From assembly GCA_001797365.1 (NCBI GenBank), contig MGPH01000013.1, positions 30,887 through 64,400 on the forward strand: a DNA stretch of 33,514 nt, written 5' to 3'. The position numbers were made by a program, and so were the translations under genes. How positions within the stretch are numbered: position 1 is the stretch's first letter; the number at the start of each line of letters is the position of its first letter. The notes beneath the pieces were generated by a model. That model was given only the letters and a program-made list of their open reading frames with translations. It ran no database searches and was not told where the DNA came from. This document shows positions 19,458-21,532 of the stretch, piece by piece. Origin of the DNA: Deltaproteobacteria bacterium GWA2_45_12. Its GTDB lineage: Bacteria; UBA10199.

Positions 19458-20594
19458 TTATGCTCCTCCTACAACTTCCATCGCTCGGGCCACACCTTTA
19501 CCCAGTTCAAACTTGTAACCCATTTTAGCCATCGCCATTTCAATGGCCGACCAAACGGTGATCATATCCATGGCATCGTAATAACCCAAATGACCGATAC
19601 GGAAAATCTTCCCCTTGGCGGCATCTTGCCCGCCGGCAATGGTCATATTGAATTGATTGCGCAAAATTTTCACAATATCCCCGGAATTCATTCCTTCAGG
19701 GCCATAAATAGCGGTGATTGAATCAGCCGGTGATTCGGGCGCAAACAGTTTCAAGCCCACAGCCTTGGCCGCCTCACGTACGCTACTAGCCATGATACGA
19801 TGACGCTTGAAAATATTTTCCAAACCTTCTTTTTGCATGTTTTGAAGAACCACACGCAACCCCTGAATAAGGCTTACAGCGGGTGTCCAGGCGGTGGTAT
19901 TTTCCAGGATATTTTTCTTTTCGGTTTTAAAATTGAAATAAAATTTTGGCAGATCGCTCTTTTCAATGAAACCCCAGGCTTTCTGGCTTACGGCTGCAAA
20001 GGAAAGCCCCGGAGGTAATTGAAGCGCTTTTTGGGAACCCGAAACCAAAACATCAATACCCCACTGGTCCATGGGAAGGGGGAACACACCCACACCGGTA
20101 ATGCCATCAACGACTAAGGCTGTTTGATCAAATTTTTTGACAATGGCGGCAATCTCTTGGATGGGGTGAGCCACACCAGTAGAAGTTTCGGAGGCCTGCA
20201 CAAAGACTGCACGATAGTCTTTTTCCTTGAGTTTTGCTTCAATCTCACTGGCTTTGACTGCCTGACCCCACTGGACCTTGATAACATCATGTTCCAAACC
20301 ATACGCCTTGCAAATTTTCCACCAACGCTCACCAAACTTGCCTCCATCCACAACCAGGGCACGATCTCCCTTGGACATTAAATTGACAATGGAGCCTTCC
20401 ATGGCCCCGGTACCGCTGGCAGCAAAAATAAGAACTTCTTCCTTGGTTTGAAACAACCACTTTAAGCCGGCTCTTACTTCTTCAATTACTTTTTCAAAGG
20501 CGGGAGTGCGGTGGTGCCAAATGGGTTTGGCCATCTCGGTTAAAACATCTTCGGGAACAGGGGTGGGACCGGGAGCATAAAGGCGGTATTTCAT
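19458..20594 (-). CDS. Class V PLP aminotransferase (AGXT/PucG type), probable serine-pathway enzyme (378 aa)
   Basis: PLP-dependent fold type I enzyme. It begins MKYRLYAPGPTPVPEDVL, the usual alanine-glyoxylate/serine-pyruvate aminotransferase start. PLP phosphate-binding region: FAASGTGAMEGSI. The Asp contacting the PLP ring is in VVDGITGVGV, and the Schiff-base Lys is in VSGSQKALQLPPG (about K189). Because it is tightly coupled to serA, the most likely role is converting phosphohydroxypyruvate to phosphoserine (replacing classical SerC), as class V members do in several lineages. Serine-glyoxylate exchange is the alternative. The ATG has no Shine-Dalgarno site; instead a four-copy heptamer repeat lies just before it. 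Confidence 0.9.
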   Translation of the reverse strand: MKYRLYAPGPTPVPEDVLTEMAKPIWHHRTPAFEKVIEEVRAGLKWLFQTKEEVLIFAASGTGAMEGSIVNLMSKGDRALVVDGGKFGERWWKICKAYGLEHDVIKVQWGQAVKASEIEAKLKEKDYRAVFVQASETSTGVAHPIQEIAAIVKKFDQTALVVDGITGVGVFPLPMDQWGIDVLVSGSQKALQLPPGLSFAAVSQKAWGFIEKSDLPKFYFNFKTEKKNILENTTAWTPAVSLIQGLRVVLQNMQKEGLENIFKRHRIMASSVREAAKAVGLKLFAPESPADSITAIYGPEGMNSGDIVKILRNQFNMTIAGGQDAAKGKIFRIGHLGYYDAMDMITVWSAIEMAMAKMGYKFELGKGVARAMEVVGGA

Positions 20595-20775: not shown

Positions 20776-20824
20776 TAAAAAATGTTGCGGGGCTTGGATT
20801 TGAACCAAGGACCTTCGGGTTATG

Positions 20825-21484
20825 CTTACCACGACAACTTTCGTTGCTCCTTAAAATTTAAGAATTCGTGGCCTGGACTTTACCTTCACCATACCATCTC
20901 ATAGAGATGTTTTAGGTGCCTGCCATCAAGTCTCTACACCTTCTCAACCAATTTTAACATTGGCTGAGCTTGGCTCGGGATTACCCTGCTAACGGCTTCC
21001 CCGAGTTTGACAGGTTTTCGTACAAAAGTTTCCTTCTGTACAGCCCACTGCGAAATTAATTTCCAAGCGTCACGATAGCTTGCAGAAGCTGGCTTCCTTT
21101 GGCGCTTGGAGGCTTCGACTAAGTGAATTTCACTGCCGTAGCCAATAAATACCTTACTAGGGAAAACATAGAAGAGATCTAATTCCTCTATGTAAACAAG
21201 AGCAAAGTCAAAATCACTGGAAAGATAATTTTTACGAACCATCTTTCGCCGATTTGTTTTGGTTCGACGATTATCGACAACATAATTGCCTTTAATACGG
21301 TCAAACCAAGCTGACTTCACCTGGACCTTGGAAAGCACACCATTAATATCGAAAACCAGGTCATAGCTTAACCTGTCTCCGATGGGCTTGAGTACCCCCC
21401 AACCCCGCTTCAATGAATGAAGCACGGTGGCCTGTTCAGCCAGATCACCCTTTAGCTTGGTATCCATGTCAATTTCGCGGATCG
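20825..21484 (-). ncRNA. Group I intron (IC3-like) in tRNA-fMet, 660 nt
   Basis: The 5' exon ends in U and the intron ends in G, as group I introns require. Helices I can pair: P1, exon GGCU (21488-21485) with guide GGCU (21045-21042); P1 extension GCGAAATT (21478-21471) with AATTTCGC (21057-21050); P2 with GAAA tetraloop (21041-21020); P3 CCTGTC (21014-21009) with GGCAGG (20924-20919); P4 CTCGGG (21005-21000) with CCCGAG (20979-20974); P6 CTCAGCCAAT with ATTGGTTGAG; P7 GACTT (20932-20928) with AAGTC (20880-20876); P8 CACC...GGTG with CATCTC/GAGATG; P9 CCACGA (20871-20866) with TCGTGG (20834-20829), including a CAAC GAAA GTTG hairpin. The core words AATCCCGAGCCAAGC and GAAGGTGTAGAGACT closely resemble the Anabaena tRNA-Leu and Azoarcus tRNA-Ile introns (from memory). 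It is probably self-splicing. Confidence 0.95.
20934..21467 (-). CDS. Intron-encoded PD-(D/E)XK homing endonuclease (177 aa)
   Basis: The ORF starts 17 nt after the 5' splice site, in the loop of P1. It begins MDTKLKGDLAEQATVLHSL. The restriction-fold motif is visible: Glu11 in the first helix, Asp36 in SYDLVFD, and Gln49-x-Lys51 in KVQVKSAW. This is the E...D...QxK arrangement of the I-Ssp6803I type, the endonuclease of the Synechocystis tRNA-fMet intron. The expected role is to cut intronless tRNA-fMet genes at the anticodon region so that repair copies the intron. The C-terminal ~42 residues (from ISQWAVQKE to the end) are encoded by the ribozyme's P1-guide, P2, P3, P4, P5 and P6 sequences, and the TAG stop lies just before P7. 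No Shine-Dalgarno site is seen. The alternative, an unrelated passenger nuclease, is unlikely given the location. Confidence 0.88.
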   Translation of the reverse strand: MDTKLKGDLAEQATVLHSLKRGWGVLKPIGDRLSYDLVFDINGVLSKVQVKSAWFDRIKGNYVVDNRRTKTNRRKMVRKNYLSSDFDFALVYIEELDLFYVFPSKVFIGYGSEIHLVEASKRQRKPASASYRDAWKLISQWAVQKETFVRKPVKLGEAVSRVIPSQAQPMLKLVEKV

Positions 21485-21532
21485 AGCCCGACGAGCTACC
21501 GGACTGCTCTACCCCGCGGTAAATAGGGGTTG

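What the first reader, a model, noticed from the sequence alone, without database searches (positions are those of the whole stretch)
20785..21518. Initiator tRNA gene interrupted exactly before the anticodon by a group I intron, apparently outside cyanobacteria
Two halves of a perfect bacterial tRNA-fMet are separated by 660 bp. The junction (U33/C34), a 3' terminal G and a full P1-P9 fold all fit an IC3-type group I intron. Group I introns in tRNA-fMet are known from cyanobacteria (Synechocystis). Here the neighbouring genes look proteobacterial or delta-like, suggesting lateral transfer or a wider host range. If this is the only tRNA-fMet gene, all translation initiation in the cell depends on splicing.
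Basis: partly seen in the sequence, partly recalled or inferred. Interest (0 to 1): 0.92.

Follow-up and report, generated by a model that had tools for sequence, protein, structure and literature searches.

The report
Self-splicing intron in initiator tRNA gene
In an uncultured, delta-proteobacterium-like bacterium, what appears to be the only gene for the tRNA that starts every protein is split by a presumably self-splicing RNA parasite that carries its own DNA-cutting enzyme; the same parasite, known from cyanobacteria, sits at exactly the same spot in about a dozen bacterial phyla.

Summary
On the minus strand, 21518-21485 and 20824-20785 join to a perfect bacterial tRNA-fMet. The 660-nt insert (21484-20825) is a group I intron: Rfam RF00028 57.8 bits, and covariation across 42 homologues with 96% of cells paired. 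Its ORF lies in the P1 loop and runs on through the ribozyme core to P7. This is therefore a new member of the known tRNA-fMet/I-Ssp6803I mobile intron, outside cyanobacteria. It is not a one-off: about 65 homologues occupy the identical U33|C34 site in about 12 phyla, including cultured Bacteroidota. The endonuclease tree rejects a single origin even within the window's own class (AU p 0.0009), so lateral homing is well supported. In that class, 35 of 46 genomes carry exactly one intact fMet and 4, including this one, carry exactly one interrupted copy and no intact copy, so initiation very probably depends on splicing. Less expected: the endonuclease gene lies either inside the intron or just downstream of the tRNA, with more than one relocation inferred. 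Splicing and cleavage were not tested.

The parts
21485..21518 (-). tRNA-fMet 5' exon (positions 1-33, ends ..CGTCGGGCT)
   Evidence: C1, GGG anticodon stem
20825..21484 (-). group I intron, 660 nt, inserted between U33 and C34; last base G
20785..20824 (-). tRNA-fMet 3' exon (anticodon CAU to A73; CCA not encoded)
20934..21467 (-). 177-aa PD-(D/E)XK homing endonuclease ORF, I-Ssp6803I orthologue; starts in the P1 loop, overlaps P2-P6 of the ribozyme, TAG stop 1 nt upstream of the modelled P7 5' strand
   Evidence: PF11645 1.6e-49; PDB 2OST 6e-65; E11, D36, Q49, K51 invariant in 65 homologues
21471..21478 (-). P1 extension 5' strand GCGAAATT (pairs with AATTTCGC at 21057-21050), closing the loop that holds the ORF
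   Evidence: sequence
21042..21047 (-). internal guide sequence UGGGCU: P1 with exon GGCU|CG (U.G wobble at the splice site); its GUG can form P10 with the anticodon CAU
   Evidence: sequence; GGGC at least 90% conserved in 42 homologues
20825..21041 (-). catalytic core P2-P9 (P2 21041-21020, P3 21014-21009/20924-20919, P4 21005-21000/20979-20974, P5, P6 20973-20939, P7 20932-20929/20879-20876, P8 20918-20887, P9 20871-20829) ending in omega-G
19458..20594 (-). class V aminotransferase, downstream neighbour; orthologue (77% aa) at the same place beside the interrupted fMet of G004
   Evidence: Pfam PF00266; tblastn

Best explanation
It is a mobile, presumably self-splicing group I intron of the tRNA-fMet/I-Ssp6803I family. 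The pre-tRNA is transcribed; an external guanosine attacks after U33, held by P1 (exon GGCU with IGS UGGGCU); the freed exon attacks after the terminal G, guided by P10 with the anticodon CAU, and functional tRNA-fMet results. The ORF in the P1 loop makes a PD-(D/E)XK nuclease that cuts intron-less tRNA-fMet genes in the anticodon arm, so that repair copies the intron in (homing). Because that target is nearly the same in all bacteria, the element has crossed phyla repeatedly. Shown here: anatomy, covariation, orthology, invariant nuclease motif, identical site in about 65 loci, incongruent trees, mutual exclusivity of intact and interrupted genes. Inferred: splicing, cleavage, homing, vectors.
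For: Exons join to tRNA-fMet. RF00028 57.8 bits. 42-sequence covariation: 37 of 51 pairs with two-sided changes, score 0.497 against 0.07-0.10 for slid controls. HE is PF11645 and 2OST, E 6e-65, with E11/D36/Q49/K51 invariant in 65. Same site in about 65 loci. HE and intron trees both put window-class member L071 with Omnitrophota, away from the window; a single clade for the class is rejected, p-AU 0.0009. Around the junction 20 nt of exon 1 (one difference, in the D-loop) and 15 nt of exon 2 agree with Synechocystis salina. Class census: 4 interrupted only, 35 intact only, never both.
Against: No RNA or enzyme data. The ORF start has no evident ribosome-binding site. The C-terminal 28 residues of the ORF overlap the ribozyme and are not a conserved part of the family (11 of 32 embedded ORFs stop at 149 aa). 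Most non-cyanobacterial hosts are MAGs, so single records may be mis-binned.
Confidence: 0.95

Rival explanations
1. The intron is an immobile relic inherited vertically in the lineage; the ORF is conserved only by chance or recent ancestry.
For: G004 (same order, another family) has the interrupted gene next to the same aminotransferase orthologue (77% aa), and HE identity (77%) is similar, so the window-G004 pair may be vertical.
Against: 5 of the 8 genomes of the order lack the intron pattern and 3 of these 5 show an intact gene. The same-class member G016 has a different, Omnitrophota-like copy. Nuclease motif residues are invariant across 65 homologues.
Confidence: 0.1
2. A second intact tRNA-fMet exists in an assembly gap, so the intron is dispensable and initiation does not depend on it.
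For: G000 is 95% complete in 68 contigs, and no tRNA-His, -Asn, -Cys or -Leu(UAA) was found, so some tRNAs are missing.
Against: The only two intact CAU tRNAs are Ile2 and elongator Met by sequence. In 35 of 46 class genomes exactly one intact fMet is found, and none has both forms. G004, 100% complete, has 41 intact tRNAs and no intact fMet.
Confidence: 0.08
3. Splicing is lost or inefficient and the gene is a pseudogene.
For: No transcript data are available to exclude it.
Against: Exons keep a perfect cloverleaf; P7, the U.G splice-site pair, omega-G and the covariation are intact; no other fMet gene was found.
Confidence: 0.02

Closest known systems
Synechocystis tRNA-fMet group I intron with I-Ssp6803I (Biniszkiewicz 1994; Bonocora & Shub 2001; PDB 2OST)
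   Same: Same gene, same U33|C34 site, intron of 655 nt with a 150-codon PD-(D/E)XK ORF (PMC1995217) against 660 nt here; HE 75% identical over 140 aa to S. salina
   Different: Host is an uncultured delta-like lineage; ORF runs on 28 codons through the ribozyme core; intron sequence itself diverged
ORF-less tRNA-fMet introns of Nostocales and Bacteroidota with the HE gene just downstream of the tRNA (layout B)
   Same: Homologous intron core, same site, same HE family
   Different: 240-340 nt intron; HE gene mostly begins 90-280 nt after the start of exon 2 (two cases 848 and 2125 nt) instead of lying in P1
Other bacterial tRNA group I introns (tRNA-Leu(UAA), tRNA-Ile(CAU), tRNA-Arg(CCU))
   Same: Anticodon-loop insertion, self-splicing class
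   Different: Different tRNA and site, usually no ORF (own knowledge; not compared here in detail)

Membership tests
Group I catalytic intron (RF00028) | Match above gathering score | tested here: met
   57.8 bits against 50, full model 1-253
Group I catalytic intron (RF00028) | P3-P8 core with P7 and pseudoknotted P3, supported by covariation | tested here: met
   (P3 six of six pairs with two-sided change; P7 invariant)
Group I catalytic intron (RF00028) | U.G at the 5' splice site and terminal omega-G | tested here: met
Group I catalytic intron (RF00028) | Self-splicing with external G | not testable with these tools
   needs RNA experiment
Subgroup IC3 | IC3-specific core and peripheral features | tested here: inconclusive
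   GAAA-capped P2 and P9 hairpin are present, but no subgroup model was run
I-Ssp6803I tRNA-fMet mobile intron | Insertion at U33|C34 of tRNA-fMet | tested here: met
   same site in all mapped homologues, S. salina L064 included
I-Ssp6803I tRNA-fMet mobile intron | PD-(D/E)XK HE orthologous to I-Ssp6803I | tested here: met
   2OST E 6e-65; PF11645 1.6e-49; motif residues invariant
I-Ssp6803I tRNA-fMet mobile intron | HE cleaves intron-less tRNA-fMet | not testable with these tools
   needs enzyme assay
Initiator tRNA (tRNA-fMet) | CAU anticodon, 1x72 mismatch, GGG/CCC anticodon stem | tested here: met

The most novel reading that the evidence does not exclude
The fMet intron is a pan-bacterial parasite of the initiation step. 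Its endonuclease gene repeatedly moves between the P1 loop and a free-standing position beside the tRNA, is also carried by phages next to their own fMet-like tRNA (L192), and, where embedded, is read by ribosomes that run into the ribozyme core, so that nuclease synthesis and initiator-tRNA maturation exclude each other on one transcript.
Probability: 0.3. Interest if true: 0.65.

Novelty: new member of a known kind. Interest (0 to 1): 0.5.

Why it matters
The element was published mainly as a cyanobacterial curiosity. The data here suggest it is a bacterium-wide mobile intron whose target, the fMet anticodon arm, is nearly universal, so it can home across phyla. In the hosts examined the single initiator tRNA gene is the interrupted one, so all protein synthesis would depend on ribozyme splicing. 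Standard tRNA finders miss such genes: ARAGORN finds no tRNA in the window by default, and the tRNAscan-SE 2.0 authors report 36 genomes with missing fMet or Ile2 genes for this reason (PMC8450103).

Tried and rejected
A phage or plasmid source for the window copy: no plasmid match, and named phages give only 25-38% matches. A second fMet gene: the one-mismatch hits to GGGCTCATAACCC are not in tRNAs, and the intact CAU tRNAs are Ile2 and elongator Met. A hidden tRNA-Asn in G000: the pattern search found only the Ile2 and Met loci and a 3'-half fragment. My first exon regex had an error and returned nothing; it was fixed. Monophyly of the cyanobacterial HEs could not be rejected (p-AU 0.26), so direction of transfer (out of cyanobacteria or into them) is undecided. 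The 1994, 1997 and 2001 primary papers could not be read (two id look-ups failed; the 2001 paper was not looked up); they are cited through later papers.

Full report
Observation. On the minus strand, 21518-21485 reads CGCGGGGTAGAGCAGTCCGGTAGCTCGTCGGGCT and 20824-20785 begins CATAACCCGAAGG. ARAGORN finds no tRNA in the raw window. On the joined exons it reports tRNA-Met(CAT), with the initiator marks C1xA72 and a GGG/CCC anticodon stem. The intervening 660 nt end in G and lie between U33 and C34. Rfam assigns 21067-20852 to RF00028 at 57.8 bits.

The intron encodes a 177-aa protein (21467-20934, minus strand) that matches PF11645 at 1.6e-49 and PDB 2OST, the I-Ssp6803I endonuclease (identified as such from my own knowledge; the entry is titled 'Putative endonuclease'), at 6e-65. 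A published table lists the Synechocystis PCC 6803 tRNA-fMet intron as 655 nt with a 150-codon PD-(D/E)XK ORF (PMC1995217). Motif residues E11, D36, Q49 and K51 (window numbering) are invariant in 65 homologues. The ORF begins 17 nt into the intron, inside the loop closed by P1 and its extension (GCGAAATT/AAUUUCGC). It runs on through P2-P6, and its TAG stop ends 1 nt before the modelled P7. Among 32 embedded homologues 11 stop at 149 aa, so the last 28 residues are probably incidental read-through.

Ribozyme anatomy. P1 pairs exon GGCU|CG with the guide UGGGCU, with a U.G pair at the splice site. The guide's GUG can pair with the anticodon CAU as P10. P2 and the last P9 hairpin carry GAAA loops. 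On 42 aligned homologues the 51 proposed pairs are 96.1% standard and 37 show two-sided changes; the covariation score is 0.497 against 0.07-0.10 for slid partners. The core plus 3' exon folds at z = -5.5 against shuffles.

Sole initiator tRNA? In the window's genome (68 contigs, 95% complete) 40 tRNAs are found above the cut-off. The only two intact CAU tRNAs are, by sequence, Ile2 and elongator Met. tRNA-His, -Asn, -Cys and -Leu(UAA) were not found, so assembly gaps exist. A census of the class removes most of this doubt: of 46 genomes, 35 have exactly one intact fMet pattern, 4 (G000, G002, G004, G016) have exactly one intron-exon 2 pattern and no intact one, and none has both. The remaining 7 show neither pattern. 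G004, 100% complete, has 41 intact tRNAs covering every amino acid except Asn and lacking an initiator Met; its fMet and its Asn gene are both interrupted by group I introns.

Distribution. The protein search returned 69 loci. About 65 intron-bearing loci map to the same site of tRNA-fMet: Cyanobacteriota, Bacteroidota including cultured Spirosoma, Arcicella, Neolewinella and Flavobacterium, Chloroflexota, Actinomycetota, Planctomycetota, Acidobacteriota, Thermodesulfobacteriota, Pseudomonadota, Omnitrophota, several Patescibacteria lineages and several records titled Deltaproteobacteria. Many are MAGs, but the isolates establish the point.

Lateral transfer. The HE tree needs 19 changes of phylum label. 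The window HE is 79% identical to a Scytonema copy over 140 columns. L071/G016, of the window's own class, groups with Omnitrophota in both the HE tree (99/99) and the intron tree (97/85), while the window groups with G004 in the intron tree (95/86). Holding the four class members together is rejected (p-AU 0.0009). The window and G004 copies share the downstream aminotransferase (77% aa), so that pair may be vertical. Holding the cyanobacterial copies together is not rejected (p-AU 0.26), so the direction of transfer is open.

Two layouts. In layout A (30 measured introns, 634-695 nt) the HE gene is inside the intron. In layout B (34 introns, 240-340 nt) it is outside and downstream of the tRNA, mostly 90-280 nt after the start of exon 2. 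Layout needs 9 changes on the HE tree (2 forced by strongly supported branches), and one clade for layout B is rejected (p-AU 0.011). Two cyanobacteria (L097, L099) have an intact fMet with an HE remnant downstream. An IMG/VR contig (L192) carries an intact HE (54% identical) whose end overlaps an fMet-like tRNA, beside a suppressor-type tRNA. That is a possible phage vehicle, not shown to be one.

Literature. Group I introns in tRNA-fMet are reported for cyanobacteria. The tRNAscan-SE 2.0 paper counts 36 genomes missing fMet or Ile2 because of group I introns and names Gloeobacter and Synechocystis for fMet (PMC8450103). I found no report of the cross-phylum spread in the searched library, which lacks most subscription papers, so priority is not claimed.

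Verdict. A real and well-supported member of a known mobile intron family in a new host. Interest comes from the breadth, the apparent dependence of the single initiator tRNA on splicing, and the relocating endonuclease gene. Self-splicing, cleavage and homing were not tested here.

Noticed in passing
G000 contig C7:42135-42784 (L001): A second group I intron interrupts the 23S rRNA gene between ..CTAAGGT and AGCGAAATTCC.. (near E. coli 1931 by my knowledge) and encodes a LAGLIDADG endonuclease (PF00961 3e-25).
   Followed up: partly
L003-L020, L027-L031, L221 (same-class genomes): Group I introns interrupt several other tRNA genes in this class: Lys(CTT), Asn(GTT), Leu(TAA), possibly Thr; in G004 the only tRNA-Asn found is interrupted between anticodon positions 35 and 36. 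25 of 60 relatives searched have a group I match.
   Followed up: partly
L192:2001-2499 (IMG/VR contig): A viral contig carries a free-standing I-Ssp6803I-like endonuclease (54% identical) overlapping an fMet-like tRNA gene and near a UUA-anticodon (suppressor-like) tRNA.
   Followed up: partly
L169, L170: Distant PF11645 endonucleases (about 30% identical) lie just downstream of intact tRNA-Ala(GGC) genes, hinting that the family targets other tRNAs as well.
   Followed up: no
G000 contig C35:33637-33680 (L161): A 3' half of an elongator-Met-like tRNA without a 5' half, as left at attachment sites of integrated elements.
   Followed up: no
L097 and L099: Cyanobacteria with an intact tRNA-fMet and a truncated endonuclease remnant directly downstream: candidate intron-loss or collaborative-homing footprints.
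   Followed up: no
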